Part shown: positions 26,630 to 64,000 of the stretch, piece after piece
Position numbering within the stretch: the stretch's first letter is position 1
Layout of the letters: every line of letters starts with the position of its first letter
From: Hemileia vastatrix
Lineage: Eukaryota > Basidiomycota > Pucciniomycetes > Pucciniales > Zaghouaniaceae
Direction: 5' to 3'
Length of the DNA: 64,000 nt
Assembly (NCBI GenBank): GCA_030280995.1
Contig: JASXTE010000016.1
Span: 8,825,501-8,889,500 of the forward strand
Translations under genes and position numbers: made by a program
Notes under the pieces: generated by a model
Databases searched by the model: none
What the model saw: the letters and a program-made list of their open reading frames with translations, nothing else
What the model was told of the DNA's origin: nothing

Positions 26630-27058
26630 CAAGTCTCCTTTGAAAATTTGACAATCCCCCACCCCTGGATTTTTTTGAAGTAAGGGGTGGGTATCACAAA
26701 AATTCTTTCATGTCATGAATCTTGAAAGTTTTATATGAAAATTTGGCTTTACTACCCCCTGCATTTTACCGGTATCCTAAAAATTCTTACATGTCAAGAA
26801 TTTCACAAGTCTTATAAAAAAGTTTGGCACAACCCCCCATGGATTTTATTGAAGTAAGGGACGGGTATCACAAAAATATTTACAAGTCAAAAAAATTCTA
26901 TATCTGTTTAAAAAAATTGGCAATACTCTCCCCTGCATTTTATTGAAGCAAGGGGTGGGTATCACCATAATTTTTCTAAGTCATCAATTTCACATGTCAG
27001 ATTTGAAAATTTGGCAATACCCCCCCCTGAATTTTATTGAAGTAAGGGGTGGAAGTCA
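26630..27058. repeat. Minisatellite of about 100 bp with C-run/G-run hairpins
   Basis: About 4.5 imperfect units, each holding AAATTTGGCAATACCCCCC, then TGNATTTTATTGAAGTAAGG, then GGGTGGGTATCAC and an AAATTTTTACATGTCA-like tail. The C-run and the G-run of each unit can pair. It lies between ORF1 and the oxygenase gene, both of which transcribe toward it, so a role in ending transcription is possible but unproven. Confidence 0.7.
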
Positions 27059-27246
27059 TCTAAATTTAATATAATTACATAAATTATTAAATAAATATCT
27101 AATATATATCAATTTCCCTAGTTTAAAGTAATGACAATCCCTCAAGCCAAAATGCAGACCAAGTCGAGAAACATAAGTTTGGGACTTTCTACAGGTATAG
27201 GAAAGAGGAACCCCATGAAACAAATAAATGTTATCATGATTACCTG

Positions 27247-29925: not shown

Positions 29926-30238
29926 ATGTGCAGTTGGGGTGTGTAGATAGAAAAAAAACTTAAGTGTTCGCCACCAAAATTAAGTAGCATAGAGTGAGGA
30001 AATACTTAAGGATGGCATCAGCAATTATAAGTCATGTGACTTTCTTAAAAATCCATCATGGATGAGATGAGTTTGGGATCAGGAATTAGGAATGGAAATT
30101 GGGGTATAAGAGGCGGGATAATGCATTATCGTGGATTTCTTATCCACTAGCCCTGGGGCTAGTGGATAAGAATCTTCTGCAATTAATAATGTCTGATCCC
30201 GGGAAAAAAAATTCCCGATCCCTAATTGCAGATCCCTG

Positions 30239-30253
30239 AACATTGATACCCCC
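30239..30253 (-). repeat. Harbinger right terminal inverted repeat
   Basis: AACATTGATACCCCC, the exact inverse of 24758-24772. Followed by TAATA. Confidence 0.85.
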
Positions 30254-30369: not shown

Positions 30370-32584
30370 TTTGGCTTACATTTTTAACTCCATTTTTTCC
30401 TTTGAATCTTATACATGCTTAATTCTATACTTTCATGTATAAATTAATCCAAAAAAATTTCTTCATTTTGCTGCCCCATTCTATATAGCTGATCAACTTC
30501 CTGCTGCCTAACTGCTGGATTCCAATTTGGCTCCTCTTTCAAAATTGAACATATAAAAAAATTAATACTTTTGTTCTTAATATGAAATATAAGATTTTGA
30601 GCTCAACATTATATTTACATATTTAGCACACCTGAGATCTATACTCACTCCTGAAGCCTGAATTGTTCCAACCAAAACATGGAAATTTTTATTTAAATGG
30701 ATTTTATGCAAATATTGTCTTGCCTTGTCCTGCTGAGCTCATCTATAAGCTGGGTATACTCAATATTTTGGTCATCTAGATCCATTTTTATTCTATTTTG
30801 AAATATTAGAACATTTTATTTAATAAGCCAACACAATTTTGTATAACAATGCATTATATAATCGCTTACATCTGCAAAAAGTCTGCAAAGTTGGAGAATA
30901 TAACTGCTTTTAGAAAATTTATACCCCTTTCACCAGACAAAAAGTTTTTCAAGTGGCCTATAAGATGATAAATCTTTTCAGAATGATTCCAGGTTAAATC
31001 AAAAGTTGGAGTTTCATCCAGATTTTTGTAGATTGGATGGTTGCAGAATTTTCTTAAAATCATCAGCTCTCTGAGAAACTCAGATGAGTCCCAAGGGAGG
31101 TCAGTGCTTCTGGAGGGCCCATATCGCTCAGTTAATTCTTCTTGAAGCACATCAAGTTTATACCTCCATGGATCTGCTAATTGAAGAGATATCCCCCTTT
31201 GAATCTTTTTTGGAAGAGACAAAATTTCATCCTTTTTTCTACGGAGGCTTATGACTTTCATTAATTGATTGATTGATTTAATAGAATTAGTCTTTCTTTT
31301 TGCAAACCTGGAAAAAGGAAATTCTTCCATAACCATTCTTCTTGCCACTTTTCAATTCTAAGAAAAAATATGAGTCTTTGAAGGTCAGTGGGCCTGTTCT
31401 GAAGTGGAGTTCCAGTCAAGCATAGTCAGTGTTGGGATTCCAAGTCAAATATTGTTTGAGCCCTTTGCAAGTAAGGATTTTTAATGTAGCTAAAAGAATA
31501 TTTATAAAAATGAGTTTTAAGGTTTAGATATAGAAATTGGAACTAACTGAGCTTCATCTAAAGCAACTCTATACCAAAATAGCCTTTTGAGTCACCGGTA
31601 TCTTTTTTGGCTTTGATTTTTTGATATTTTTGGGCTAGCTGTTTTATAGGTCATTAAAACAATAGCAGTGTCCTGTATCTCATTGAAATTTATATTTTGA
31701 CAATCCTTCCCATAAAGAAACTTGAAATGAAGCACATTATTTTCAAAGTGCACACTTATTTCATTGATACAATTTGATAGTGTTGCCAGTAGGCATATAA
31801 TCAGTGTGGCTGAGCTCCGATTAATACCTTCTTAATTATCCTAGACCTGGAATTGTCTTGCTTCACTTTACTTTGCACTAATAAGAGAAAGAGTTGAAAG
31901 TGTCTTTCTCAAACCCATTTTATCAGTGAATATTTACCCATTTCATTCTGGTATTAATTGATTGTTATGAAACTGATCTTTATAGTCATCAAATCCAGCT
32001 CTAAGAAAATAGTTGTCCTGGTTCCTCCACATGATATCCAACTTTTCCTTTTTCATTCCTTCATTGTCAATCATAAAATTCATTTCTTGAATTTGATGTG
32101 TTTTGTGAACTGTTTTGATTCCTTGGATAAGTTGATCAACTTTCCAATCTTGATTACTCTGAGATATTTTGAAAGAGGCTTCAAAAATTACATGTGGGAT
32201 ATTAAAAAATATAGTGGAGTCATAGTTTGGGATTGGAAATAAATTGATTTGAGCAGAATAAAATGCTTCTTTAGCAAGACTTATTAGTGTACTTGATGAA
32301 AAGACGCATCCCCAAAGTTGATAGTGATTACCAAAAACTGGAACCAAGTAAGCATGAAAACAGAATGGCTTCATAGGATTCAAGGCACTTCTTTGGTTTA
32401 AATGGTGAGATCCAGACCCAATTTCACCCAATAGTGGTCCAATGTGTTGACTCTGCACTTGAGAAAGATTACCAACAAGGGCTGGTTTTCTTTCTTCAAA
32501 TAGTCTACAAATATAAACATTCAAATGGCCTTGCTTTAAAATCTTGGGGGTCTGTGAGTTTTGAAATCTTGAAATTACATTCAT
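30370..32584 (-). pseudogene. RAD5/HLTF-like SNF2 helicase, decayed
   Basis: Frame 32584-31943 gives an N-terminal region (VGNLSQVQSQHIGPLLGEIG). Then follow SNF2 blocks in order: motif I as MGLRKTLSTLSLI (31901-31918; GLGKT has become GLRKT), SATLIICLLATLSN, LHFKFLYGKD with TAIVLMTYKT, and DEAH recreated across a GT-AG intron (about 31491-31548) followed by YIKNPYLQRA. Next come LCLTGTPLQNRPTDLQRL, the frame 31348-30866 (LMKVISLRRKKDE, LRELMILRKFCNHPIY) and finally EPNWNPAVRQQEVDQLYRMG (about 30456-30535). A TGA at 31426-31428 replaces a probable arginine, there is a frameshift near 31320, and the ATP-binding lysine loop is altered. It is host-type but dead, possibly a duplicate or one carried by a transposon. 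HLTF/RAD5 proteins act in DNA damage tolerance. Confidence 0.8.
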
Positions 32585-33654
32585 ATAAATTTAATTGATT
32601 GTTATTGAGAACTTTCCAAAACAATTGAGACTTGACATCTTAAGTAAGAATTGTATCTTAAGATAGTGATTGTTAAAAGATAGATTGAATCCATAAATAA
32701 ATAATCAGTTTTGAATAAAACAACAAAATAACTTTTCAGCATCTGCTACGCTAAGCTCATAATTCTTTCACATTAATTATTATTTTCTTTTTAAAAATAT
32801 TGGAATTAAATAAATGATAACTGAAATGAATAATATGGCTTAAAAACAAATCTTGAGCCTATAGAGTAAATTTGGGTTTGTGGAAGAAGAAAACGTTTCT
32901 TAAAAAAAAGGATCTTTTTTGTTACATTATAATCAAAAAATAGAATAATTTCACTCTTATTACACTTATTTATGTTTCTGTCCAATAGTAAAATGATTTA
33001 GGTGGAAGTTCAAAATCCAAATTGAAACTAATATCTAGAACGATGTCTTGATACTAACAAACTATTTGAAATTCTTTGGACATACACTTATGGTGATCTA
33101 AATAATATTAAAATTGATTTGAATTGTATGTTTTTATCAAATATCTATGTAGTCTAATGTAATCATTGAGATACTACAGTTTATCCTTCTGTAACCAGCT
33201 TGGTAAGAAAATATCTGTAGCTCCTCTTAGGCCCAATTTCAGCCAGGCTATCTCAGGAGTCCAGTAAATTGTTATAATAATTTATTGGAATCATATAAGG
33301 GAATAACATTATGTATTTTATGTATTTACAATGAAATATTTTATTGAATAACAAAATTACATAAACATTTTATAAATAAGTAAAATAAATATTATATTTA
33401 TTTTATTTTTAGGTAAATTTTTAATTACAAAAAATTATATTATATTCTATAAAATTATGATGCATTTTGATGTATTTAATAGTAATAAATTAATAAATTA
33501 ATAAATAAATTATTTATCAAATTATATTATAAGTGTTACAATAAATTTAACTTATAATTTAATTACAAATTAATTAATAAAATTTATATATTAAATACAA
33601 TATGTCATATATTATTATCCATATATATTGGAAGCTTTTTTTGACCCTTAATTG
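32585..33654. other. Very AT-rich stretch, no gene seen
   Basis: I see no supportable gene. 33290-33800 is extremely AT-rich with many TTAATTAA/AATTTAT-like words. Confidence 0.5.
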
Positions 33655-45534: not shown

Positions 45535-46710
45535 TGTAAGTGTATCTAGTATTTAAGTATGATTTAATAATATTTATTAATGGACCTACTACTTATTAAT
45601 AAATTATTTAGTGATAAAACCTCAGGGAAAGACTAATAAAATAGTTATACTCAAATAAAACTCACAATTCTTGGATTTAAATGCATGCTAGTGGGTGAAT
45701 ATAGATAAATATAATATAGTTCTAGCTTATATAAAGATAATATCAATTTATAAAGGATTTATAATATATTTCTAAATAATAATAATTGTTTTATAATGTT
45801 TATTTGAATTGTAGTAAGTAAGTGATGTCTAATAACCATGAAAATCCTCCCTTACTTATACCAAAATCCAATGGAGTGCACAGAGCTTCAATCCAGATGA
45901 TGTCACTGCTATCCCAGGAAATTACAGAACTTTAAGGGCCCATCACCTCCCCATTTTGTCCACTTCAAGAAGATTCAACACCCAGACCTCAAGTAAGGAC
46001 CCTCCATCACAATTAATGATAACACAGACCCATACCATAAATAGAAAATCCAGATAAAAGCAGATACCATAAAGAAACAGGTAAAATAACTCATCCAAAG
46101 AGGATATAATGAAAGCAAAATCATATAAAGGAAAAAAATGAAATGTCCAAGTGCCCAATAACATCCTCAAACATCCATATTTACCCAGCAATGACCTCCC
46201 AACCCATAAATCCGTGAATATCCATCCAAGGAAGCAGATTAAGTTGTCCAAACTGAGTGTATGCGCCTGAAATAGATGTATATGCTTATGTAGGCATTGT
46301 GAGTCCACTGAATATGTCCATATGACATAAAATAAGCAGAAAAATAAAGGTTATAGACTATTAAGAGGCTAACACCCACTTATAGCCCTAAATATACATA
46401 ATATACTGCATATTTCACTGAAAATGAGATTTATGTATAAATATAAGCTTATGTATGTCAAGAATTACTTAATATCACTAAATATAAGTATATTATGACT
46501 CCATTAAGAACTTCATAAGTATTATTATTCTGTGGATAAGTTATTTAAACTACTATAATTTATATAATAGAGTAATAATTATATATATATGTAATATAAT
46601 CATATATATTATTGTTTTAACCTTAATTTTAAGATATAAGCCTAATGTACTTAAGGTTATCTTATTTTAAGTATAAGAAATACTTAGTCCTAGGGATATC
46701 TAGGCTGACA
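45535..46710 (-). repeat. A2 3' LTR
   Basis: A family A LTR starting TGTAAGTGTATC (for TGTCAGTATAGT) and ending ATCTAGGCTGACA, about 1,176 bp. It is more diverged from the A1 and A4 LTRs than those are from each other. It keeps the TATAAG (45855-45860) and the TGACATCA site (45898-45905). Next to it, 46711-46726 is the polypurine tract. Confidence 0.85.
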
Positions 46711-46822
46711 CTCCCTCACCCCAAAAAACAATAAAAAAATGTTAAGACATTTTAATTAAAAGTAAGGATTGAATAGAATTTTTTTTTTAATTTTCTACAA
46801 TACTTATACTGAATAAACAGTA

Positions 46823-48795
46823 TTATTTTGATTTAAATTTTTTTAAGAGATTTTTAAGATCAGAGATTAGATTTTCTGGGATCCACTGGTCATATTGCCT
46901 TGATTTATTTTTAAATGTTAATAGATACTCAACTCCCTTTTCTTTAATAGGGTGTCTCTTTTTAAGTATCTTTTCAATTTCTACCTTTTCAACTATTTCT
47001 ACAGGTTGCTGTTTATGCCTTCCTGATCTTCTTGAAAATAGAGAAGTATCATTAGAATGGTATGGTTTTATAAGAGAAATAAGAAATACTGGATGTTTTC
47101 TATCATATGGTGCATATAGAATAACCTCAACAGCATTGTTACCAACAATCTTTTTAACTACAAATGGTCCAATGAATGGATCCTTCAATTTAACATTACC
47201 ATTTAAATTGAAATGTAGTGTTGAAATAAGGACTTCATCACCCACTTTGAACATTTGATCTTAATGGGCTTTATCCCATCTTTTTTTCTCATACTCAAAC
47301 GCCTTATTTATAAATTCTTGAGCATGTTTTCTGCATAATTCATGCATCTGAAGAAAATATTTAGTACCTGGATGGATATCCAATCTAGGTAATTTATTAA
47401 GAGTTTTGGCAGGGTTATAAGGTACATAACCCAACCACAACTCAAATGGCTTTTTGCCAGTGACAGAATGTACTGTACTATTGTATGCAAATTCTAAACC
47501 TGGGATATGGATTACCCAATAATTCGTGAATTTTTCAATGTTCTTTAAAGTTAAGACCCAAAGCACAATATCCTTTTATCATATCTTCCAAAGTTTTTAT
47601 CATTCTTTCTGCTAGCCCATCAGTTTGTGGATGGTGTGCTGTAGAAAGTTTTAATTGACACCCTGAAACATCCATAAGTGATGTCCAGAACTCAGAAGTA
47701 AATTTAGGATCTCTGTCAGAAAAAATTGCTTTGGGGAAACCTGCTATATTTAAAATTTGTGTCCACCATAAAAAATCTAAGTCCTTTTCAGAAACTTCTT
47801 TGTGGGTAGGAATAAATTTACACATCTTTGTAAATCTATCTAAAATTACCCAGCAGGAGTTATAACTCTTATGCCCTGCTATTGGCAAGCCTGTTACAAA
47901 TTCAATGTTAATTGTTTCCCATGGATCTTTTGGTTTCTCAATTTGTTGTAATATACCAGCTCTTTTGCCTGTTAATCTTTTAGATTTTTGACAAGAATCA
48001 CATTTCTCAACATATTTTTGAACATCATCAGACATGTTAATCCACCAAAATGTGTTTTTTACTCTGCTTAATGTTTAATGGTAGTCAAAATGACCTGCCA
48101 ATATATCATCATGACATATACTTAACATTAACTCCTTCATTGAAGGGGAAACTACAATTACATTACTTAATTTTTTCGTGTAATATGTAAAACCATCCTC
48201 AATGGAAAATTTTCATTTTTCTAATGCCTCTTTATACTTATTTATTAATGATTTTATTAAAAAATTCATTGAAGCATTAGATGGATCATTTAATATTGTG
48301 GTGAGTTTACTCAAGTCAGGATATGAAGCATACATTTCAAGAATTGATTGCACGAATTCATTGTGAAGATCTACAATATAAATGCCATAAATGTTAATAA
48401 TCTCTGATTCAGGAGCATAAGCAGGATTATCATTATTATTAGGCAGAGGTATTCTAGATAACTAATCTACATTAGAGTCTAAGGTTCCTGCTCTTTTTTT
48501 AATAGTCATCTGTCCTCTGTAATCTTGTAAAGCTAATTGCCATCTAAACATGTGTCTATTAGGAGTTTTCATGTTTAAGAGTGAGTTAACTGCACTACAG
48601 TCAGTTATTTACTCAAATTTTTGGTCTTTAAGGCAATAATGTAGCTTCTCAAGAGCCCATACTACTGCCAAACATTCAAGTTGAGTAGCACCATATTTTA
48701 ATTTACTACTTCTTAGAGTATGTGAAATATAGAAAATTACTACTTCTGACATTTATCTTTCAATAAGTTGTTTTTAATACAAAGCAGCACCCATA
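46823..48795 (-). pseudogene. A2 pol 3' half: RNase H, integrase, chromodomain
   Basis: On the minus strand from 48795 downward: RNase H tail in broken frames (48795-48480), linker, HHCC region (48220-48036), integrase core frame 48035-47535 (D in INIEFV is changed to E; SDRDPKF and TDGLAERMIK are kept), frame 47566-47261 (EFAYNSTVHS), and frame 47254-46823 with the C-terminal domain and a chromodomain containing DQWIPE. It is cut at 48795 in the RNase H domain by the 10.4-kb element; the same gene resumes at 59163. Confidence 0.85.
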
Positions 48796-48845
48796 CACCA
48801 CAGGAAATCTGGGGGTGAGCTGCTAGCAGTTCCCTCTATTTGAAA
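48796..48845 (+). repeat. Left terminal inverted repeat of the 10.4-kb element
   Basis: CACCACAGGAAATCTGGGGG, then TGAGCTGCTAGCAGTTCCCT. It contains a CTGCTAGCAG palindrome and resembles the MITE ends at 51632 and 54228. Confidence 0.85.
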
Positions 48846-50210
48846 CTATCAGGAATTTTTCTGGAAACTGTTGGGAAACCATCCTGAAACTTTCAGAAAT
48901 ATGTTTTTAAATCTGATGAAAAAAGATTGAAAAAATAAACTGTCACAGATTGAATCCAGAACAATCCCTCCTTGAGCAGAGCTTAGGAACCACATTGAAC
49001 ATCAGTTAATCTCAGGTTTGGCAAAAGGTTGAACAACATCACTTAGCATACCTTAATATTCAAATATTAAACTTGAATATATGTTGCGTGTATGATATAG
49101 ATGCATATGCATTTGAATTTGCATGGTGGATACTTATTGCATGTTAAAAATTGATGTGAAATGCCTATCCAAAGTGTATGCATAATGACTATGAAGAATA
49201 AATATGCAAAACAAATATTAATAAAAAATGCATATTGATTATGCATAAAAAATATTCATATTGAATATGCATAAAAATATTAAAATTGAATATTCATTTA
49301 AATTTGCATATTGAATATGCAAAAAAATGGTGCATATATGTATATGAATAAAATGTATTAATATGCATATACATCTGTATAATTAATATGCATATTCATA
49401 TGCATAAATATGCATAATGATTGAAAAATGCAAAAAAATGATGCTTAACGAGTATATTTTATGCATAAATAGAAATATGCAATATGAATTCATATTGCAT
49501 AAAGATAACACTGGCAAACCAACTTGACCAAAACTCATACTAAATTTTCATTCTGGACTAAAGGTGTGAGGGAAGGAAGAAAAACAGTCTGACATTAGAA
49601 AAATGCTACATGCACTCATTTTGTAGCAGAGCAAATGAGAAGTGCTGAATTATGGTTGGTGCCCATAATTTTATTTAATTGTTTTCAATATTGAAAAGAC
49701 TTTAGGTTGGTTGGTATGGATCTAGCTGTGCCAGGGTCTAATCTAATTTTTTTAACTATTTCTTAATAATTAACGGGTTTTAATACAAAACCAGGTTGTA
49801 TTTTTTGTGGGATATTGGATATCATAAGGTCTTTTGTAAAAAAAACTTATATTGTTTAAAAATATTCCTGAATCAGATGTGGGATAATCACTACAAAAAA
49901 TTGTAGTACTGTGGGAAATAAAATATATGCACAAGCCGTAAAGAAAGGACTGAGTGAACCCTTTTTGTGCAGTGGGAATCATTAGAGTGGAATTGTGGAT
50001 GAAAAATCTAATTCATTATTACTATTTTATTTAATCAAAAAAATTATAATTTTAAAAAGAACTATTGATTCATTGGTATTTGACCTTTGTGCCTCACTCA
50101 TATTTATCATTTGATTGATTTTTTTTCACTATTATGTTATTAATATTATAAGTATATCAAAAACTCATGTGCCCAAGGCATACTGGGTGATGTTACACCT
50201 TTTAAAATAT
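48846..50210. other. Left interior of the 10.4-kb element
   Basis: 49070-49500 is a degenerate array of ATGCATAT/TTGAATATGCATAAAAAT-like words, purely A/T/G/C-poor and easily melted. No gene found. The palindrome units begin about 50030. Confidence 0.6.
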
Positions 50211-51631
50211 TATTAAATAAAGGTAAAAAAATATGAAAATGATTTGTTTACAAAAAATAAATTGATATCCAAAAGCAATATGAGGGATAAAAAGTTAAAA
50301 TTAAAGGGATCAAATATGAAATAAAAAATTAAAGTAGAATTCCTGCAATCAAGAGCAAGTAGACATGATGGGGTGAACACCCACCAGTGGCACTTAACTT
50401 GGACTATAATTTCTTTTTTGTAAAAATAAAAAAAATACACTTGAGCTTTACCAAAACTTCAGGATGACAATTTTTTAATATCAAACAACTTCTAGTGCAA
50501 TTATTGAAGAAAATTTCATTTTCATTGCAATAGAGAGAATTGATCACATAAGGCTGCATGTGACCAAAAGTGTCCAGCAAAAGTTTGGCCAAACTTGTGC
50601 TGGACACTTTTATGTTGGAGAGTAGCTAGGGTGGAATTTTTAATCAGTTCATCTGGTATTTCTTATAAACATGTCCACTGGTATTTGATCTTGGTTCCTC
50701 ACTCATATTTATCATTTGATTGATTTTTTGTCACCATTATGTTATTAATATTATAAGTATAGCAAAAACTTGTGTGCCCAGGGCATACCGGGTGATGTTA
50801 CACCTTTTATGATATTATTAAATAAAGGTAAAAAAATATGAAAATGATTTGTTTTAAGAAACATAAATTGATATAAAAAAGCAGTATGAGGGATAAAAAG
50901 GTAAAATTAAATGGATCAAATATGAAATAAAAAATTAAAATAAAATTACTGCCATCAAGAGCAAGTAGACATGTTAGGTCAAATGCCCACCAGTGAGGCT
51001 AAACTTGGACTATAATTGCTTTTTTGAAAAAAAAAAATTGCCAACCTGAGGTTTAACAAACCTTCAGCAGAACCATTTAGCTATATCAAACAACTTCTAG
51101 TGTAATTATTGAGAGAGAATTGATCACACCAGACTGCATGTGACCAAAAGTGTCCAGCACAAGTTTGGCCAAACTTGTGCTGGACACATTTATGACAGAG
51201 AGTATCTAGGGTAGAATTTTTTCTCATTTAATCTGGTATTTCTTAAAAACATGTCCATTGGTATTTGATCTTTGTGCCTCACTCATATATATCATTTCAT
51301 TAATTTATTTTCACCATTATATTATTAATAATATAAGTATAGAAAAAACTCATGTGCCAAATGCATACCAGGTGATGTTACACCTTTTATAATATTATGA
51401 AATTAAAGTAGAAAAATATGAAAATGATTAGCTTTACAATAATTTAAATAGATATTAAAAAGAAAAAGAGAAATGAAAAAGTAAAATTAATCTCAAAGAG
51501 ATCAATTATGAAAAACAAAATACTTGTAAAATTCTTGCTCTCAAGAGCCAGTAGAAGTTTTGAAACAAATGGGAGCCATTAGGGCTAAATTTTAATAAGT
51601 GACCTATTTTTTAAAGATAAAAAATTATACA

Positions 51632-51892
51632 CACTACGCAATATAGGGGGTGGACTTGCTAGCAAGTCCTCAACCTGAACTCAGATGGAACTCAGATGGA
51701 ACTCAGACTGAACTCAGACTGAACCCATACTGAACTCTACTTGAACACCCACCTAAAACTGTTCTGCTGAGTGGTGTTCATCCCTGATTGTATGATTCCT
51801 TTATCAATAGCTCAATGTGTGTTCAATCTATGGTGAGTTTGGGTCCAAGGTTGCGGACTTTCTAGCAAGTCCGCCCCCCATATTGTGTGGTG
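51632..51892 (+). mobile_element. 261-bp CACTA-like MITE, copy 1
   Basis: Starts CACTACGCAATATAGGGGG and ends with the inverse of CACCACACAATATGGGGGG. ACA on both sides (51629-51631, 51893-51895) is a 3-bp target duplication. The inverted ends of about 40 bp include GGACTTGCTAGCAAGTCC, an 18-bp perfect palindrome. Inside is an 11-bp repeat (TGAACTCAGAC-like, about six copies). No coding capacity. Confidence 0.9.
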
Positions 51893-54227
51893 ACACTTGA
51901 GGTCCAGAAGAACGACAGGTGGATGATTCAGCTAAACAAAACTACTTGTAGTGAAGTTTGATAAAAAATGTTTTTGTTGCCATAGAGAGACTTGATACCA
52001 TCTGACTGCACATGACCAAAAGTGTGCAGAACAAGTTTGGCCAAGCTTGTGCTGGACACTTTTATGATAGAGAGTAGCTTGGGTGGAATTTTTCTTCAGT
52101 TCCTTCATCTTGTATTTCTCATAAACATGTCTAGTTGTATTTGATCAGTCTGTATCATTCATATTTATCATCCAATTAATATTTTATCACCATTATATTA
52201 TTAATGTTATTAGTATAGCAAAACCTTGTGTGCTAAATGCATACCAGGTGAAGTTATGAATTCAATAATTTTTTAAAATAGACGTAAATAAATATGGAAA
52301 TGATTAGTTTTACAAAAATTAAATAGAAATTTACAAGTAAAAAGAGGAATAAAAAGTCAAAGAGTTCAAATATGAAAAGAATACTAGTAAAATTCCTGCT
52401 ATCAAGTGCCAGTAGAGGTTTTAAAGCAAATGGGAGCCATCAGGGCTTATATTTAATAAGTGAACTTTTTATTAAAGATAAAAAATTATACATCTGATAT
52501 TGGGCAGAACAGCTTGTGGATGATTAAGCTAAACCAAACTACTTCTAGTGAAATTTGATAAAAAAGATTTTTGTTGCCATACAGAGAATTTATCCCATCT
52601 AGCTACACATGACCAAAAGTGTCCAGCACAAGTTCGGCCAAGCTTGTGCTGGACACTTCTATGATGGAGAGTGGCTGGGGTAGAATTTTTCTTCAGTTCA
52701 TCTGGTATTTCTTACAAACATGTCTACTAGTGTTTTATCTTTGTGCCTCACTCATATATATTGTTTGATTAATTATTTGTCTTAATTATATTATTAATTT
52801 TATAAGTATAGCAAAAAGTCGTGTTCCAAATTTATACTGAGTGATGTTACACCTTTTATAAAATTATTAAATAAATGTTTAAAATATTTAAATAATTTAT
52901 TTTCAAAATTATTAATTGATATCCAAAAGCAATATGAGGAATAAAAAATTAAGTTAAAGGGATATAATATGAAAAAAGAAATCCAAGTATTATTCCAAAT
53001 ATCAAAGGCAAGTAGAGATGTTGAAGCAAATGAGATCCATCAGGGATAAATTGTACAAAATGACTGTTTTTTAAAGATAAAAAAATGTGTACCTGTGGTT
53101 TGGATGAACTCTAGGTGGACAATTCAGCTATATGAAACTACATCTAGTGAAGTTTCTAATCAAATAATTTTTTTCATTGCCATAGAGAGAATTAATCCCA
53201 TCTGACTGCACCTGACCAAAAGTGCCAGCACAAGTTTTGCTGAACTTGTGCTGGACACTTTTATGATGGAGAGTAGCTAGGGTGCAGGTCTTCTTCAGTG
53301 CAACTGTTATTTTTTTAAAACATGTCAACTAATATTTGATCTTTCTGTGTTATTCATATTTTATTATCTGATTAATTTTTTGTTATTAGAATATTATTAA
53401 TTATTAGTTTAGAATAAAATTGTGCGCCAAATGCATGCCATGTTATATTACACCTTTTATAATATTATTAAAAAATGTTAAAAAAATATGAAAATGATTT
53501 TTTTTCCAAAATAATAAATTAATATCCAAATGTAACATGAGTGATAGAGAAGTAAAGTAAAAGAGATCATATATGAAAAAGAAAAATTCAAGGAAAGTTC
53601 CCGCCTTCAAGAGCCAGTAGAGGTGTTGAAACAAATGGGTGCCATCAGGGCTAAATTTGACAAAATTTAATTTTTTTTAAAGATAAAAAATTTTTCACCT
53701 GAGGTTTTGAAAAACTTAAGGTGGATAATTCAGCTATACCAAAGTACTTCTAATGTAATTATTTAGCATTTTTTTAAATTTAATTTACACAGAGAGAATT
53801 TATCCCATCTGACTACACCTGAACAAAAGTGTCCAGCACAAGTTCGGCTGAACTTGTGCTGGACACTTTTTTAATTGAGAGTAGGCATACAGCAAATCTT
53901 CTTATACTCAAATGGGACTTCTTATAAGCATTTCCACTGGTATTTGATCTTTCTGTGTCATTTAAATTTACCATTTGATTAATTTTTTGTCATCATTATA
54001 TTATTAACGTTATTACTATAGTAATAACTTGTGTGAAAAATGCATACCAGGTGGTGTTCCACCTTTAATCATAAATTATTAAATAAAGGTATAAAAGTAT
54101 GAAAATTATTGATTTTAAAAATTAAAAATTGATATCCAAAGCAATATGAGCAATAAAAAAGTAAAATAAAAGGGATAAAATAAGAAAAAAAATCTAAGGA
54201 AAATTCTCACTATCAATAACAAATAGA

Positions 54228-54488
54228 CACCACACAATATGGGGGGCGGACTTGCTAGCAAGTCCGCAACCTTGGACCCAAACTCACCATAGATTGAACA
54301 CACATTGAGCTATTGATAAAGGAACCATACAATCAGGGATGAACACCACTCAGCAGAACAGTTTTAGGTGGGTGTTCAAGTAGAGTTCAGTATGGGTTCA
54401 GTATGAGTTCAGTCTGAGTTCCATCTGAGTTCCATCTGAGTTCAGGTTGAGGACTTGCTAGCAAGTCCACCCCCTATATTGTGTAGTG
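54228..54488 (-). mobile_element. 261-bp CACTA-like MITE, copy 2 (inverted)
   Basis: The same element in the opposite direction, also 261 bp, flanked by AGA on both sides (54225-54227, 54489-54491). By eye it differs from copy 1 at four positions (about 98.5% identity), far less than the repeat units around it. Both are therefore recent insertions, or one locus was homogenised. Confidence 0.9.
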
Positions 54489-57400
54489 AGAGGTGTTATA
54501 TCAAATGTGCACCACCAGGGCTCAACTTGGACTATATTTTCTTTTTTGTTAAACCAAAGAAAGTACCGTGATTAGTTTTGAAAAATCATCAGGAGGACAT
54601 TTTGGCAATATCAAACTACTTATTGTGCAATGATTGAGCAAAATGTCATTTTCATTTCCATAGAGTAAATTTATCCCATCTGACTGCATGCAACCAAAAG
54701 TGTCCAGCACAAGTTTGGCCGAAATTATGCTGGACACTTTTATGATGGTGAGTATCTAGGGTGCAGGTCTTTTTCAGTTCATCAGGTATTCCTGATAAAC
54801 AAATCCACTTGTATATGATCTTTCTGTGTCATTCATATTTATCATTTGATTCATTGTTTTTCACCATTATACTATTAATGTTATTAGTATTGAAAAAACT
54901 TGTAAGCCAAATGTATACTGGGAGATGCTACATCTTTAATAATCTCTTAAATAAAAGTAAAAAAAATATGAAAAGTATTAGTTTTACATTAAACAAACTG
55001 ATATTTGAAAGCAAAAAGAGGAATAAAAAAGTAAAATAAAAGTGATTAAATATGAAATTAAACATTTAAATAAAATTTCTGCCATCAAAGATAATTTGAG
55101 TTTTCAGACCAAAATTGCACCACCAGTTCTAGATTTGGAATATATTTTCATTTTTTTAAAATTAATAAAAGTGTCCACCTGAGGTTTTCCTAAAAATTAG
55201 GAGGATAGTATAGCAGTATAAAACTACTTCTTGTACAATGATTGAGCAAAAATTCATTTCAACTTCCATTGAGTAAATTTATCCCATCAGACTGCATGCA
55301 ACCAAATGTGTCCAGCACAAGCTCAGCTGAACTTGTGTTAGACAATTTTATGATGGAGAGTAACTAGGGTGCAAGTCTTCTTCAGTTAATCTTGTATTCC
55401 TTTTAAACATTTCTATGGGTATTTGATCATTCTGTGCCATCCATATTTATTATTTGATTATTTTTTAGTCACAATTATATTATTAATGTTTTTAGTATAG
55501 CAAAAACATGTGTACTGAATGTAAACTGGGTGATTTTACAAATTTAATAATATTATATAATAAATGTAAAAAAATGTGAAAATTATCAGTTTTACCAAAA
55601 TAAAATTGATATTTAAAAGCTAAAGGATAAATAAAAGGGTAAAATTAAAATTAAAGAGATCAATCATGAAATAAAGATATAAAGTATAATGTCTGCTATC
55701 ATGAGCCAGTAGAGGCTTCAGAAAAAATGGGCACCATCATAGATTAACATGGATTAAATTTACTTTTTACCAGAGTAAACAATTGTCTACCTTAGGTTTG
55801 GACAAACTTCAGGGGGACAATTTGTCCATATAAAACTACTTTCAGTGCAATGATGGAGTCATCATTCAGTCTCATTTCAATAAAAAGACTTGATTGCATC
55901 TGACGGCATGCAACCAAAAGTGTCCAGCACAAGTTTGGCCAAACTTGTGCTGGACACTTTTATCATGGAGAGAAGACAGGGTGAAAGTCATTTTTAATCA
56001 TCTGAAATTTCTTATAAACATGTCCACTGTTATTCAATCTTTGTGCCTTACTCATATTTATCAATTGATTAATTTTTTGTCACCATTATTTTATTAATAT
56101 TATCAGTATAGCAAAAACTTGTGTGCCAAATGAATACTGGGTGATGTTACACCTTTTATAATATTATTAAATAAAGGTAAAAAAATATTAAAATGATTTA
56201 TTTTACAAAAAATAAACTTCTATCCAAAAGCAATATGAGAGGAATAAAGTAAAATAAAAGAAATTAAAGATGAAAATTAAAATCCAAGTTAAAATCCTGA
56301 CATAAAAAGAAAAAAGAGATGTTGAATCAAATTAGCACAATCAGGGCTAAACTTGCACTAAATTTTCTTTTTTGTAAAAAAAGAAAAAAAATCCACTTGA
56401 GCTTTACCAAAACATCAGGATGACAATTTTGTCATATCAAACTACCTCTAAGGTTATTTTTTATCAAAAATTTATCTTCATTTCCATAGAGAGAATCACT
56501 CCCATCTGACTGCACCTGACCTAAAGTGTACAGCACAAGTTCGGTCAAACTTGTGCTGGACACTTTTATGATGGAGAGTAGCTAGGGTAGAATTTTTCCT
56601 CAGTTCATCTAGTATTTCTTACAAACATTTCTACTGGTATTTTATCTTTGGCCTCACTCATAAATATCATTTGATTAATTTTTGGTCAACATTATATTAT
56701 TAATTTTATAAGTATAGAAAAAACTCATGTGCCAAATGCATACCAGGTGTTGTTACGCCATTTATAATATTATTAAATAAATGTATAAAAATATGAAAAT
56801 AATATATTTTAAAAATTATTAATTGATATCCAAAAGCAGTATGAGGAATAAAAAATTAAGTTAAAGGGATCAAATATGAGAAAAGAAATCCAAGTAATAT
56901 TCCTACTATGAAAGGCCAGTAGAGGTGTTGAAGAAAATGAGAGCCATCAGGGATAAATTGTACTAAATTTACTTTTTATAAAGATAAAAATTGTGCACCT
57001 GTGGTTTGGACCAACTCTAGGTAGAAAATTTGGCTATATAAAACTACTTCTAGTGAAGTTTTTTATCAAATAATTTTTTTCATTGCCATAGAGAGAATTG
57101 ATCTCATATGACTACACCTGACTAAAAGTGTCCAGCACAAGTTTGTCCAAGCTTGTGCTGGACACTTTTTCAATGGTGGGTATCTAGGGTGCAGCTCTTC
57201 TTCAGTGAAACTGGTATTTTTTTAAAACATATTCACTGGTATTTTATCTTTCTGTTTTATTAATATTTTATCATTTGATAAATTTTTTGTCACCAGTATA
57301 TTATTATTTTTATTAGTATATCAAAAAAACATGTGCCAAATGCTTACAGGGTGATGTTAAACCTATAATAATTTTATTAAATACAGGTAAAAAATTATGA

Positions 57401-57790
57401 AAATGATTTGTTTTACATAAAATTAATTTATATTTAAAAGAAAAAAAGGGGTAAAAAGAAATAGGTTGAATAGAAGGGATTTTGTATGAAATTAAAAATT
57501 CAAGCTAAATGCCTACTTTCAAGGCTCAGAAGAGGTGTTGGATAAAATGGGCACCATCAGGAATAAAATTGTACTTAATTTGTTTTTTTGAAAAACTAAA
57601 TGAAGTTTTCAACCAATTTTTTTCCAATATTTAGTTGGACACTTTTCTATATCATATTACTTCTAGTACCATGATTGACCAAATTACATACTCATTTCCA
57701 TATGTAGAATTGATCCCATATGGCTGGACCAGGTCAAAGGTGTCAACCACAAGCTTGAGAATTCTTCTGGTGGACACTTTTATAATGGAC

Positions 57791-59109
57791 AGTGGTAGGG
57801 TGCAAGTCTTCTTTATTTAATCTAGTATTCCTCATAAACATTTCCAACTTATTTTTGGCCAAAAATCAGGTGGAAAGTTTGTCCATATCAAATTACTTCT
57901 AATGCCATGATTGACTAAAAATTGATTCTCCTTGCCATATAGAGAGTTGATCACATATGACTGGATCTGGCAAAAGTGTCACCACAATTTTTGATAAACT
58001 TAAGTTTGAAAGTTTTATGATGGAAAGTAATTGCAATTCTTCTTCATTTCATCAAGTAATTCTCATAGAAATTTCCACCTGTATATTGGCCAAACTTCAG
58101 GTGGATACTTTGGCCATATTAAATTAATCATAGTTCCATGTTGATAAAAAATCATACTTATTGCCATATATAGATATTATTCCCATAAGACTGTGCCTTT
58201 CCCAAAAGTGTCTGCCTGAACTATGGCTAAACCTCAGTTGGAAAATTTTTTGATGCAGAGTAGCTAGGGCAAAAGTATTCTTCAGTTAATTTGGAATTCA
58301 TGATTTATTTATCCTCCTGAAGTTTAGCCTAACTTCAGGTGGAAAATTTTGGAAAGCATCGGTTAGTCACTATCCATCAAAAAAGTGTTAACCAAAATTT
58401 TTGCTAAACTTTTGGTGGACCACTTTCATCAGCCACGGTCAGATGAAATCAATTCTTTAGATGGAAATGAGGATGAGATTTTGGTCAATCATGGAAATAG
58501 AAGTAGTTTGATGTGGTCAAATTATCCCCCTGAAGGTCAGAAAAACCTCACAAGAACATTTTTTAACAGGGAGTAGCTTAGAAAAATAAATTTATCAGAA
58601 GGAAAATCATTTATTGGATAGATGCCAAGGTTTCATATTTGTGTATTATGGTCAGTATTAATTTTGAAAGTGTCTTTCCAAGCAATTTCATTGCCCATCA
58701 TGACAAATTTATTTTTAAATTCTTCAAACTGTGCGATACAGTATTAAAGTGTCACATAGTATAATTAAGTTCTATTAAGTGCCCTCCTATGATGCCTAAA
58801 TTTATAATTTAATATCTTACATAATAATCATTTTTTATATAAATCCATCAATATTTTATTTTATTATCAAATTTAATAGAGCAAGTATCCTGAACTATTA
58901 TATATGCATAAGCTTAGGTTAGATCAATTTGTGTTCAATTTGTGCTCAACAGAGGACCAAAATCAAGTTCTGGAGGATCATCTTGTGCATAATTTGGAAT
59001 CAGTTGATATTCTGTCTAAAATCAATCTGAGAATAAATGTACTTCCAATACAATTTTGTATATTGTTATTAAGTGAGAATAACCCTGGAATAATAAGAGA
59101 CACACTGGA
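57791..59109. repeat. Decayed right part of the 10.4-kb element
   Basis: Shorter, more diverged repeats of about 230 bp (near 57640, 57880, 58100, 58330) share AACTTCAGGTGGANANTTTGGCC, CATATCAAATTACTTCTA and CCATATAGAGA. Palindrome remnants are at 57975, 58205 and 58385. 58430-58560 is an inverted relative of the unit (GATGAAATCAATTCTTTAGA, ATTTTGGTCAATCATGGAAA). 58600-59109 shows no gene; a 103-codon frame at 58904 runs into the terminal repeat and has no motif. Confidence 0.6.
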
Positions 59110-59159
59110 TTTCAAAGAGAGGGGATCACTAGCAGATCACCTCCAGATTTTCCGTGGTG
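59110..59159 (-). repeat. Right terminal inverted repeat of the 10.4-kb element
   Basis: Read inward: CACCACGGAAAATCTGGAGG, then TGATCTGCTAGTGATCCCCT. Nine differences in 50 from the left end. Confidence 0.85.
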
Positions 59160-59162
59160 ATA

Positions 59163-60136
59163 CAAATAAAACTTGCATTTGTATACAATACAAAAGGCAA
59201 TTAAAAATTTGGTAATCCCAAGATAGGAGCCGTCATCAAACATTCTTTCAAATTATCAAAAGAATGTTGTCTTTCATTATTCCGAATGAAAGCTTCTGAT
59301 TTCTTTATCAGTTTGGTCAATGATTCAGCAATTAACTGGTAGTTTTTTACATATTGTCTATAATAGCCACACATACCAGGAAAAGATTGTACATCCTTTA
59401 AATATTGAGGAATTCCAATATTATTTATTGCAACCACTGTATGTTGGTCTACACATATTTTTAAGCCAGATACAATATGACCAAGCACTTTTAAAGATTC
59501 AAACCCAAATTTACATTTTTACAATGCAAGGGTCATTTTTATTTCATCTTTTTTCTTAAATACCTTCTTTAAATGGATTAAGTGTTCACCATATGTCTAA
59601 GAGAACACTATGATGTCATCAATGTATACCATAAACCATCCTTCAATAATTTCATTATGGAATGTTTTTTCCATTAACTTCTGAAATACTGATGGAGCAT
59701 TTTTTGGTCCAAATGGCATCCTGATATATTTATAAATTCCCATGTGTGTTGTTATCAACAAAAATTTCTGTGAATTCTTTTCAACAGGAATTTCAAGGTA
59801 CTCTTTATTTCCATCTAAGCAACTTATATACTTAGCACCTTTAAGGGTAGCATGTATAGAGGCAATCCTTGGAAAGGGATAAATATCATCTACTGTAAAT
59901 GTATTTAATTCTCTTTAATCACCACACAGTGTTGCTTTATCTTGTTCATTAGAAATTAGCACTGGTGATATTACACAATATTTTGGTGTAGTTTCAACCT
60001 TTTCAATAATTTTAGTTTTTAATAACATTTTAATATTATCCTCTATGTCTTTCCTCCTCATTGGTGAAGCAGGGTATGGTTTCTTTATAAGACTAGCATG
60101 AATATTATCCATATCACAAGTTAAACTAATCTTCAT
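59163..60136 (-). pseudogene. A3 reverse transcriptase and RNase H start
   Basis: The continuation of A2 pol. It starts in the RNase H block (complement of YTNASF-like codons at 59163-59195). Frame 59488-59201 covers the RT connection (GMCGYYRQYVKNYQ, RNNERQHSFDNLKECL). Around 59580-59640 lies the YIDD region (MVYIDDIIVF, then a stop). 59641-60136 holds the palm and fingers (MPFGPKNAPSVFQ, SCLDGNKEY) and the frame 60136-59915 (KKPYPASPMRRKDIEDNIKM). Stops and frameshifts are present, but fewer deletions than in A1. Confidence 0.85.
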
Positions 60137-61482
60137 TTAATGATCTTTTACAAGGCCAAGTTCATTTGTACCATGTGCAAAAGCCATTGCAAATGCTTTA
60201 TTTAAGTCCAAAATACTATCTTTCTCAACTTCACTTATCTGAGTGCCAAATGATGCTTTTGAAATTTCTGTTTCCAGAAGTTCCATCTCATTGGATTCTC
60301 TTCCTTTGCACAGAATATTTGTTACTGACTCAATGTGTAAGACTGTGTTAAAAGAATTTTTTCTAAATTTCCTTTTACCATTCATGCCAATTGTAAAATT
60401 GTTATTAGCAGGGTCTAATCTCACACCAAATTTAGTCAGAATATCATTTCCAATGATAAAACAGTTACTACAGTTAGTATTATACATTACTACAAAGTCA
60501 CAAGTTACCCTTACATAACCATGTTGGTGTTTAAAGAAAACAGCAGCTTTGTATTTACCAATGGGGTGTAGCACTGATCCAAACCTCTCCAATTTTTATT
60601 TTGAAGTGGTTCAAGCTTAAACCTATATTCACTATCAATTTTCTGTAATGTATTAGTGGAAACAACAGAACCAGCAGCTCCTGTGTCCATTACTATATTA
60701 ACATTTTTACCAGAAATGATAGCTGGAACCGTGATAGGTGTCATTCCAAAGTTATCAGCTTGTATATCTTTAATGATTTTAGCATTGTCAAAATTCATTA
60801 AAGATTCATTTGAGTCCATATTCAATATTGGATTGTCGAAGATGAACAAAGCATCTTCCAACATACACACTTCATTTTCATCACTATGTAAGATATTACT
60901 GTCATAATCAATTGATTCTTTACTTTTTTCAGTTTCAGTCTCATATTCCTGTTGATTTTCAACAATATTTATATTTTTCTCGCATTTGTGACCTTTTACC
61001 CAAGGTTTGTTACACTTATCACAAGTATTTGTCTCATACTTTCTTGGTACTACAGGTGCAGTAGACTTTTTCTGATTCTCCTGAAGTGTTTTTGAATTCT
61101 GATTTTTCACAGGTTCAAAATTTTGTTTATAAGTGGAATACCTTGCTTCATACTTATGGTTTAGAAATATTTTATTTCTAATATTAATAAAGTTAGAACA
61201 TTCAGTAACATTAATAGTTCCAGCTATAACTATTTCTCTAACAGATATAGGTAGTTTATATATTATCTTATCTTTCCATAAGTTAAAATCCACATTAGGC
61301 TCAATGGCATTTAATATTTTATTTAAATTCATTAAAAATACCATAGGTTTGTCATCATTCAACAGATTATACCTAGTTTTCTCATAAAGTCTCTGCTGAG
61401 TGAGCCTCAATTTAAAGCCTCCAATTTGTTTTTTAAATAGTTGTTTCCATTCATCCCAAGAGTAATCTTTACCCTCACTCAA
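60137..61482 (-). pseudogene. A3 capsid end, zinc knuckle, protease and linker
   Basis: Frame 61482-60511 (323 codons) keeps capsid C-terminus (PMVFLMNLNKILNAIEPNVD), the zinc knuckle CDKCNKPWVKGHKC, an acidic linker and the protease motif MDTGAAGSVVS in one frame, showing that gag and protease are continuous in this family. A frameshift near 60585 leads into frame 60592-60137 (protease C-half IIGNDILTKFGVRLD and RT linker). It serves as the reference for locating the lesions of A1. Confidence 0.85.
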
Positions 61483-62951
61483 AAAATCTTAAAACAATAA
61501 TAAAGCAACATCCTTACATAAAGCAATCAGATTTGATGTTATTTCTTCATCTGGTAACTTATATGAGAATTATAAATTATCAATTCTTTTTATAAAATGT
61601 TGCCAATCAGAGCTGGCTTCCCCATCATAAGTTGGGTACTGATCTATCATAGGCCAGTTTTTCTGATTGGATTTTCTTTCACTAATCTCAGGTAAGTTCA
61701 ATAACTCATTTAATCTTGAAAATGGTCTTGTATTTCCTCCTGTAAATATTTGTGACTTACATTTTTAGATTATACACTACCACCAGATGGTTTTAGTTGT
61801 GGTGGTATAGGGTATGAATGAGATTCACTTTTGCCAATGAAAGGATTATTATTATACTGAGTATACTTATAATTATCCTGGCTCATTAGTAGATTAGCAT
61901 TTTCAATCTCAACTTTATTCAATCTTTGTTGCAGCTCAGAGACACTTTGATTTGTCTGGGGAAAGGATAACTTAGTTCTTGATTCAGTTTTCAATAAATG
62001 TGTTTCATACAGTTTTTCCAACTCACAGATTTTGTTTGAAATTTCACTATATTTATTACTCAATGAATCATATTTAAGAGTTAGAGACAAATGTTCATTC
62101 TTTAATTCTTTATTATGTGTTGCCAGTTTAGAAATATTTAATGTTAAGGATGAAATTGTATCACTTGTGAGCTTAACTGTCTGTTCCTCACTATCAGTCA
62201 TTCCATTCCAGAATGCTGAAACAAATCTATGGACTGTTGGATTATTAATAAAATACTTCAAGTCTTCCTTCTTGTTTCTCTCTCTCTCTTGTGAACTTCT
62301 CATCTGACTAGTAAGTGGTGGCAAGTGAGGATTAACTGTATTATAAATACTACTGTTGTTATTGACAAAAGACAAGTCCGGTGTATCTACATTAAAACCT
62401 AATTTTCATATGTCCTCACCTATTTTCTGCACAGTTTTGACATCAATAATATTACCTATATTGTAATTATCAGTATTGTGTTCAATATGAGAGGGTAATC
62501 TACTTACCACGGGATTTGTGTGAGCCCTGATTTTTGGCACCTTTCTTTTCCCTTGTAGGGGTGAACTGAGGAAGTCTTATGAGGAGAAGGATCCTTGTTG
62601 CAGTTGTGACTGGACCATTGTTGATGGAACCAATCCCACTTCAATTTTTCTACCAGTATTTTCTCCTGGTAGTGGTGTGACCCTCCTGAAGTAAGAAGTT
62701 GCTGACTTGGCTGGCCTCCCTTTAGCTCTTTAAATTACTGGTTCATCTCCTTAAATCCTACCTTGAAATTGTTCTGCAATTTCTCTACCTCCTTGAGCAT
62801 GAGGGACTTTGATTCCTCCAACTTCAATACCTGATTTGCCAGATGGGATAGTTGATCCTGAAGAGGAGGACATGTTTTTTTATGGTAATCTTTTTTAAGA
62901 GGGTGTCTTTTTCCTCTATTCTCATTTGCTCTGCCTGGGGGTATGACTGAC
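61483..62951 (-). pseudogene. A3 gag N-terminal part (ORF1 and ORF2 start), truncated
   Basis: Frame 62375-61770 is the Ser/Asn-rich and coiled-coil region of gag ORF2 (KYDSLSNKYSEISNKICELE). Between 61770 and 61483 the capsid start is broken by stops. 62500-62951 holds the overlap region with TGGTAAGTAG at the ORF1 end (about 62503-62512) and ORF1 up to the PPGR codons. There the LTR of A4 begins, so the ORF1 start is displaced beyond the window. Confidence 0.75.
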
Positions 62952-64000
62952 TGTCAGTATAGTCTAGTAGATAAGTATGATATAACAGTGTTTATTTATG
63001 GTCCTACTACTTATTGATAAATGATTTAGTGATTAAACCTCAGGGGAAGACTAATAAAATAGTTATACTCAAATAAAACTCACAATACTTGGATTTAAAT
63101 GTGTGCTAGTGGTGAAAAATAGATTAATAAAATATAGTTATAGCTTATTTAAAGATAATATCAATTTATAGTGGCTTTATAATATATTTCTAAATGTTAA
63201 TAACTGGATAGTAGTGTTTATTGAAGTTGTAGTAATTGAATGATGATAAATAACCGTCAAAATCCCTCCTTACTTATACCCAAATCCACTGGAGTGCACA
63301 GACCTTCAATCCAGATGATGTCACTGCTATCCCCGGCAATTACAGCACTGTGAGGGCCCATCACCTCCCCATGGAGTCCACTTCAAGCGTTTTCAACGCC
63401 CGGACCTCCAGTAAGGACCCTCCATCACTATTAATAATAAAACAGATCCATACCATAAATAGAAAACCCAGATAAAAGCAGATACCATAGAGAAACTGGT
63501 AAAATAAACAATCAAAAAGAGATTTAATGAAGCTAAAAGCATATAAAGGAAACAAATAAAATGTCCAAGCCCCCAATAACATCCCCAAGCATCCACATTA
63601 ACCCAGAAATATCCTTCCAACCCATAAATCCGTGAATAAACATCCAAGGAAGTAATTTTAGTTATCCAAACTGGGTGTATGCGCCTGATATAGGTGTCTA
63701 TGCTTCTGTAGGCGTTGTGAGTCCACTGATTTCGTCCATATGACCTAAAATAAGCAGAAAAACAAAGTTTATAGGCTATTAAGGGGCTAAAACCCACTTA
63801 TATACCTAAATATACATAATATACTGCATATTTCACTGAATATGAGATTTATGTATACATATAAGCTTATGTATGTCAATAATTTCTTCATATCACTTAA
63901 GATAAGTATATTATGACTCCATTAACACTTTTTTAATTATTATTAGGCCATGGATAAGCCATTTAAACTATTATAAGTTATATAATAGAATAAAAATTAT
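62952..64000 (-). repeat. A4: family A LTR, runs off the window
   Basis: Starts TGTCAGTATAGTCTAGTAGA directly in the gag of A3, preceded by CTGAC (possible target repeat, partner outside the window). 1,049 of about 1,175 bp are visible. It is closer to the A1 LTRs than to the A2 LTR and carries TATAAG (63273-63278) and TGACATCA (63316-63323). It is therefore better read as a younger nested insertion or solo LTR than as the own 5' LTR of A2/A3. A 134-codon frame (63393-63797, minus) parallels the one in the A1 LTRs. Confidence 0.8.

What the first reader, a model, noticed from the sequence alone, without database searches (positions are those of the whole stretch)
48796..59159. 10.4-kb inverted-repeat element with no protein gene splits a retrotransposon
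The family A pol sequence breaks at 48795 and resumes at 59163. In between lies one unit with 50-bp inverted ends and an ATA duplication. Its size without any recognisable transposase is unusual for a non-autonomous DNA transposon; nearly all of it is repeat array.
Basis: seen in the sequence. Interest (0 to 1): 0.85.

Follow-up and report, generated by a model that had tools for sequence, protein, structure and literature searches.

The report
Protein-free CACTA transposon in coffee rust
A 10.4-kb stretch that splits a retrotransposon is a jumping DNA element without any protein gene, mostly an array of regularly spaced palindromes; it is one of a family with many copies in the coffee leaf rust fungus and is probably moved by the enzyme of related elements.

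Summary
48796-59159 is one DNA-transposon insertion: 50-bp terminal inverted repeats (41/50), ATA on both sides, flanks that rejoin without a gap onto an uninterrupted retrotransposon copy (72/80), no ORF longer than chance. The genome matches the Hemileia vastatrix Race I HiFi assembly. It is one of a family: 1754 left-end and 380 right-end motifs genome-wide, reversed controls 0; identical 3-bp flanks in 8 of 11 left-right pairs. The ends (CAC..GTG, 3-bp duplication) and homology over about 300 bp to the end of a locus with a tnp2 transposase (PF02992) make it a non-autonomous CACTA/EnSpm element. About 80% is an array of roughly 605-bp units, each with a 46-bp near-palindrome; the tnp2-bearing relative has its own, different palindrome array. 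Two nested 261-bp CACTA MITEs add 522 bp. Most likely it moves by cut-and-paste with transposase supplied in trans; a binding role of the palindromes is inferred. Large repeat-filled CACTA elements are known in plants; the fungal host and palindrome arrays are the new part. Right termini vary, and no autonomous element with exactly these ends was found.

The parts
48796..59159 (+). non-autonomous CACTA/EnSpm element, this copy
   Evidence: TIRs, target duplication, empty-site match
48793..48795 (.). target site duplication ATA, left
59160..59162 (.). target site duplication ATA, right
48796..48845 (+). left terminal inverted repeat (CACCACAGGAAATCTGG...)
   Evidence: 41/50 identical to the right end
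59110..59159 (-). right terminal inverted repeat
49177..49417 (+). AT-rich subterminal tandem repeat, 25-bp period, 9.9 copies
50091..58425 (+). array of about 605-bp units, more degenerate towards the right end
   Evidence: unit alignment
50566..50611 (.). 46-bp palindrome 1 (44/46 self-complementary)
51146..51191 (.). palindrome 2 (44/46)
52018..52063 (.). palindrome 3 (40/46)
52615..52660 (.). palindrome 4 (40/46)
53218..53262 (.). palindrome 5 (one base shorter; 32/46 when scored without a gap from 53217)
53825..53870 (.). palindrome 6 (44/46)
54696..54741 (.). palindrome 7 (40/46)
55304..55349 (.). palindrome 8 (36/46)
55916..55961 (.). palindrome 9 (46/46, perfect)
56522..56567 (.). palindrome 10 (38/46)
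57124..57169 (.). palindrome 11 (42/46)
51632..51892 (+). nested 261-bp CACTA-type MITE, flanked by ACA/ACA
54228..54488 (-). second nested 261-bp MITE, inverted relative to the first, flanked by AGA/AGA
45535..48795 (-). host Gypsy-type retrotransposon, part on the low side of the insertion
   Evidence: 89.3% to A1 4025-7303
59163..64000 (-). host retrotransposon, part on the high side; its LTR runs off the window
   Evidence: 89.2% to A1 7308-11099 and LTR match

Best explanation
It is a copy of a large, protein-free (non-autonomous) CACTA/EnSpm DNA transposon of Hemileia vastatrix. A Transposase_21 (tnp2) transposase made by related autonomous elements is taken to recognise the CACCAC...GGGGG...TGCTAGCA ends, cut the element out and insert it with a 3-bp duplication. 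Shown: ends, target duplications, family copies, lack of coding capacity, homology of the left end to that of a tnp2-bearing locus, and an analogous palindrome array in that locus. Inferred: supply in trans, cut-and-paste, and that the repeated palindromes act as binding sites for an accessory DNA-binding protein, as the family-specific subterminal motifs bound by TNPA-like proteins do in plant CACTA elements.
For: TIRs, ATA and empty site. Family: 1754 left-end motifs, 380 right-end motifs, 4409 TIRs at up to 3 mismatches, reversed-pattern controls 0; 40 of 40 strict TIR sites sampled on C2 are this family (39 left ends, 1 right end). Identical 3-bp flanks in 8 of 11 left-right pairs, including one copy inserted into another copy. 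End homology to the tnp2 locus on C34: 300-bp alignment score 19 against -158 +/- 17 for 300 shuffles; beyond the TIR -24 against -128 +/- 17; the transposase there is PF02992, E 4e-17. Generic TIR architecture: 17,643 sites, reversed control 0. Of 13 PF02992 hits on contigs or parts for which the TIR lists are complete, 3 sit 6.6-6.7 kb inside a left TIR of the large tnp2 family, same strand. Palindrome arrays in both elements.
Against: No autonomous element with exactly these ends was found: 0 of the same 13 PF02992 hits lie within 30 kb inside a strict TIR of this family; with exact left-end motifs on C2, C19 and C26, 1 of 27 hits does (C2:7163228, 13.1 kb inside, same strand), where 0.58 is expected by chance; that one was not fetched. 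The 27 and 13 are from the best 150 of 2198 candidates. Only 380 right-end motifs against 1754 left-end motifs, and the right 50 bp are less conserved between copies than the left 50 (0.894 against 0.962), so many copies have another or a degraded right terminus. 3 of 11 pairs lack identical flanks. Palindromes are not more conserved than the rest of the array between copies (0.918 against 0.927) and show no compensatory change beyond shuffles (201 of 500 reach the observed pairing). The right TIR of the tnp2 locus was not in the fetched stretch, and a second fetched PF02992 locus showed no such ends.
Confidence: 0.85

Rival explanations
1. The array is a passenger: a CACTA derivative captured or expanded a satellite-like repeat, and the palindromes have no role in transposition.
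For: Satellite arrays captured in CACTA elements are described in Chenopodium (PMC8978399, passages). Between copies the palindromes are no better conserved than the rest of the array. Unit number changes: between element positions 5421 and 5694 five other fetched copies (e2, e3, e4, e7, e9) carry about 615 bp that the window copy lacks, e6 about as much by arithmetic around a nested piece, e1 does not.
Against: Between units of the same element the palindrome is the best-conserved 46-column window (0.885; best elsewhere 0.821; all other columns 0.653). A tnp2-bearing relative with different sequence carries its own palindrome array.
Confidence: 0.45
2. Assembly artefact or collapse of unrelated repeats.
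For: A long repeat array in a repeat-rich genome.
Against: Seven other fetched loci hold the element from left to right end, 9.9-10.5 kb once nested insertions are set aside, with gain or loss of a unit (e1, e2, e3, e4, e6, e7, e9); with the window copy they are 3.6-7.6% apart in pairwise comparison. The matching assembly is HiFi-based with reads longer than the element.
Confidence: 0.02
3. A PIF/Harbinger element (also 3-bp duplications) rather than CACTA.
For: 3-bp duplications; Harbinger-like elements seem to be present in this genome (frames by eye).
Against: Termini are CAC..GTG; duplications include AGT, AGA and ATT; end homology is to a tnp2 (PF02992) locus.
Confidence: 0.03
4. The family is a set of relics: copies moved long ago and the element can no longer move.
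For: Mean pairwise divergence of eight copies 5.8%; nested insertions in several copies.
Against: Weak: 39 of 39 sampled left ends lie within 3 mismatches of the 40-base left motif, and every place in the cut-off listing matches it exactly.
Confidence: 0.5

Closest known systems
EnSpm (CACTA) families of Puccinia and Austropuccinia (Kojima 2025, PMC12730594)
   Same: Termini 5'-CAC..GTG-3', 3-bp duplications, rust fungi (section 3.1.5 read)
   Different: The families described there are defined by coding for transposase and, in part, a TET/JBP dioxygenase; this one encodes nothing. I could not compare sequences.
Large CACTA families of barley, DTC_Balduin and DTC_Caspar (PMC5738225)
   Same: Reference lengths 11.6-11.7 kb, thousands of copies, CACTA elements there said to contain tandem-repeat arrays (passages)
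   Different: Plant elements; no 46-bp palindrome array is mentioned in the passages seen.
Non-autonomous Spm/En and Tgm elements, moved in trans
   Same: CACTA ends, 3-bp duplication, motif arrays bound by TNPA-like proteins, family-specific motifs (passages of PMC2613891)
   Different: Those are deletion derivatives with subterminal repeats; here the array fills about 80% of a 10.4-kb element.
Galileo (P superfamily) of Drosophila (PMC4168063, search listing only)
   Same: Structurally diverse repeat-rich copies (from the listing)
   Different: Another superfamily.

Membership tests
CACTA/EnSpm DNA transposon | termini CAC...GTG in inverted repeats | tested here: met
   41/50 between the ends; CACCAC at both ends
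CACTA/EnSpm DNA transposon | 3-bp target site duplication | tested here: met
   8 of 11 left-right pairs
CACTA/EnSpm DNA transposon | tnp2/Transposase_21 in the autonomous relative | tested here: inconclusive
   End homology to a PF02992-bearing locus, but no autonomous element with identical ends found
CACTA/EnSpm DNA transposon | repeated motifs near the ends, bound by a TNPA-like protein | tested here: inconclusive
   A motif array is present, mostly internal; binding not testable with these tools
MITE | short length, usually below about 1 kb (recalled) | tested here: not met
   10,364 bp; the two nested 261-bp elements do fit
PIF/Harbinger | TWA target and Harbinger-type termini (recalled) | tested here: not met
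   CAC termini; duplications AGT, AGA, ATT among others
Plain satellite array | no defined ends, no target duplication | tested here: not met

The most novel reading that the evidence does not exclude
Fungal CACTA elements carry family-specific palindrome arrays as obligatory loading sites for an accessory protein, and this element is a pure loading array between two ends: a parasite that outcompetes its coding relatives for transposition proteins because it offers many sites, so that its large size is selected rather than tolerated.
Probability: 0.2. Interest if true: 0.65.

Novelty: new variant of a known kind. Interest (0 to 1): 0.45.

Why it matters
Non-autonomous DNA transposons best known for high copy number are short (MITEs). 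A protein-free element of about 10 kb with well over a thousand left ends in one genome suggests that length and lack of genes need not limit success, and its regular palindromes, mirrored by a different palindrome array in a tnp2-bearing relative, point to a cis-acting part of fungal CACTA elements that can be tested. If all left ends belonged to full-length copies, the family would make up about 18 Mb (1754 x 10.4 kb), some 2.4% of the genome; that is an inferred upper figure.

Tried and rejected
The 28.9-kb pair of this family's ends on C2 (2783851-2812719) was suspected to be the autonomous partner; of 11 samples 4 are pieces of the element and 7 are other sequence, with AGT on both sides, so it looks like a copy with nested insertions. 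Inserts in e6, e9a and e10b carry retrotransposon-like frames; those in e7 and e10a have Harbinger-like ends or frames; this is by eye, no domain search was made on them. A hairpin reading of the palindromes got no support from compensatory changes. A whole-genome search with the nested MITE returned no candidate, which the tool's note on very common words can explain; MITE-type ends are frequent in the generic TIR listing. One search used a wrong slice (inner right region, not the right end of e2); the comparison lines for e2 suffer from the same slip and are not used. No homologous-protein search, structure prediction or fold search was run. Of the 10 fetched copies, e5 (5.1 kb, deleted) was left out of the conservation count, and e5, e8 (two left ends facing outward) and e10 (heavily interrupted) out of the pairwise divergences; e8 is not among the 11 left-right pairs.

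Print: searches for CACTA with rust terms, CACTA with repeat terms, large non-autonomous DNA transposons with repeat terms, Hemileia with assembly terms and Hemileia with CACTA/EnSpm/non-autonomous showed no description of this family in the titles and abstract starts listed. I read part 1 of 2 of PMC10652848, outline, abstract, section 3.1.5 and passages of PMC12730594, and passages only of PMC12210899, PMC5738225, PMC8978399 and PMC2613891. The assembly's own TE library (a dataset named in PMC10652848) was not available to me and may contain it. PMC166951 is not held.
Full report
What is there. The window lies at G000:C531:8825501-8889500 of a 747.6-Mb genome. Its contig C26 is 71,415,227 bases long, exactly the largest scaffold reported for Hemileia vastatrix Race I (PMC10652848); total length also agrees (747.61 against 747.98 Mb). 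I take the host to be this coffee leaf rust fungus.

The insertion. A self-comparison shows a retrotransposon copy (A1, about 4025-12965) and a second copy cut in two, 45535-48793 and 59165-62944 plus an LTR to the window's end, with the break at the same place of A1 (7303 | 7308). Joining 40 bases of each flank with one ATA gives an ungapped 72/80 match to A1. The ends are inverted repeats, 41/50 identical (300 shuffles reach at most 26 of 50), and the longest frame, 95 aa, is below the shuffled mean of 106. The LTRs of the split copy are unequal: A2 is 13.9% from A3 and 13.9-14.3% from A1's LTRs, A3 only 6.3-6.6% from A1's (main pieces). I cannot explain that difference; gene conversion or recombination is possible.

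Inside. Repeat families cover about 50091-58425. Eleven units of about 605 bp each carry a 46-bp palindrome with majority sequence AAAAGTGTCCAGCACAAGTTTGGCCAAACTTGTGCTGGACACTTTT. A palindrome scan finds 19 in the element (the 11, three inside the nested MITEs, five others) against 0-2 in 10 shuffles. Between units the palindrome is the most conserved 46-column window (0.885; best elsewhere 0.821; all other columns 0.653). Between nine copies and the window copy it is not (0.918 against 0.927), as expected if copies decay without constraint after insertion. Two 261-bp elements with CACTAC/CACCAC ends are nested in inverted orientation, each with its own 3-bp duplication.

The family. The strict TIR pattern has 1263 sites (615 + 648), reversed control 0. 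Of these I sampled 40 on C2: 40 of 40 match this element over 167-404 bp, 39 as left ends and 1 as a right end. With up to 3 mismatches there are 1754 left-end motifs, 380 right-end motifs and 4409 TIRs, controls 0. First-look candidates, of which only 40 each were scored, were 1970 for the left 505 bp, 2166 for one 606-bp unit, 1890 for an inner right stretch and 1343 for the right 505 bp. So left ends and array are common, and the last few hundred bases on the right seem to vary or be missing in many copies. In the sample used to choose the motifs, 39 of 39 left and 11 of 13 right ends matched, but those 13 had been found through similarity to the window's right end or its TIR, so that calibration is biased.

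Copies. Ten TIR pairs were fetched and compared. Seven (e1, e2, e3, e4, e6, e7, e9) run from left to right end, apart from identifiable insertions and gained or lost units; e5 is a 5.1-kb derivative, e8 has two left ends facing outward, e10 is heavily interrupted. With the window copy and the C2 2783851 pair there are 11 left-right pairs, 8 with identical 3-bp flanks: window ATA, e1 TAT, e2 ATA, e3 ATT (inferred from alignment coordinates: e3 sits inside another copy, whose positions 642-644 occur on both sides), e6 AGA (right flank), e7 AGT, e9 AGT, C2 2783851 AGT. Not identical: e4, e5, e10. Eight copies differ by 3.6-7.6%, mean 5.8%. Substitutions from the window copy are not dominated by C-to-T and G-to-A (1142 of 5490), so no strong repeat-induced mutation pattern is seen.

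Which superfamily. CAC..GTG ends and 3-bp duplications are those reported for EnSpm families of rusts (PMC12730594 section 3.1.5). PF02992 (tnp2) has 150 scored hits out of 2198 candidates in this genome and none in 14 control genomes. I fetched two such loci. One, on C34, has a left end CACCACAGAAAATTTGGGGGGGTATTGCTAGCA about 5.8 kb before its transposase frame (PF02992, E 4e-17) with SNF2-like frames between. Its first 300 bp align to those of our element with a score of 19 against -158 +/- 17 for shuffles, and -24 against -128 +/- 17 without the TIR. The other locus gave no such end within 8 kb on either side. In the generic TIR listing for the first 4.4 Mb of C2 I see eight apparent pairs of ends of the C34 type, 27-49 kb apart, three of them at 28.5-28.7 kb (3043615-3072209, 3638487-3666956, 3919345-3948019); I did not read their sequence. 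3 of 13 PF02992 hits lie 6.6-6.7 kb inside such a left end on the same strand, against 0 of 13 within 30 kb inside strict ends of our family. With exact left-end motifs instead, 1 of 27 hits on C2, C19 and C26 lies inside, at 13.1 kb on the same strand, where 0.58 is expected by chance; it is an open lead, not a partner. The left TIR type of C34 has 2237 sites at up to 3 mismatches. The C34 locus also carries an array of another palindrome, around TTAATTTCGATCGAAATTAA, at about L050:3550-5520; the scan found 14 palindromes in its 17 kb, 8 in the 16 kb of the other locus, 1 and 3 in 20 and 18 kb of other window sequence.

How it most likely works. By analogy with Spm/En, where TNPD cuts at the ends and TNPA binds repeated motifs, and both can act in trans on non-autonomous copies (passages of PMC2613891), I take this element to be moved in trans by a tnp2 transposase, with the palindromes as binding sites of an accessory protein. 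The classification is well supported; supply in trans follows from the lack of genes; the role of the palindromes is inference. The ends themselves hold a short palindrome around TGCTAGCA whose flanks differ by family (GAAC..GTTC, GTAT..ATAC, GACT..AGTC; and the window sequence), which would suit family-specific recognition; this too is inference.

Novelty. Large CACTA elements with tandem-repeat arrays and thousands of copies are known in barley (passages), and captured satellite arrays in Chenopodium (passages). What I did not find described in the searches listed under Tried and rejected is a fungal, protein-free CACTA family of this length built from palindrome units. I call it a new variant of a known kind.

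Noticed in passing
window 24758-30253: A Harbinger-like transposon with inverted ends GGGGGTATCAATGTT and TAATA on both sides; it contains a Tet-like 2OG-Fe(II) oxygenase frame (27250-28008, PF20515, E 3e-27), as reported for other rusts (PHISTA, PMC12730594, passages). A copy that appears to lack the TET stretch sits inside e10.
   Followed up: partly
window 30869-32590 (-): SNF2-like helicase fragments (one weak PF00176 match below its cut-off), similar by eye to the SNF2 frame of the tnp2 locus on C34; possibly debris of such an element.
   Followed up: no
G000, whole genome: 17,643 exact sites of the generic TIR architecture CACYAC-N9-GGGG-N4..8-TGCTAGCA, reversed control 0: a very large CACTA expansion; the listed part shows ends of 261-bp, about 831-bp, 10-kb and 27-49-kb types.
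   Followed up: partly
L040+L041 (C2:9018642-9037516): An 18.9-kb compound: two copies of the element tail to tail, left ends outward, right ends missing in the middle.
   Followed up: no
window 45535-46582 and 62952-64000: Unequal LTR divergence of the split retrotransposon (13.9% between its own LTRs, the high-side one only 6.3-6.6% from the LTRs of A1).
   Followed up: partly
window 53825-54696: This copy seems to lack one unit of about 615 bp that five or six other fetched copies have, as unequal recombination between units would leave.
   Followed up: no
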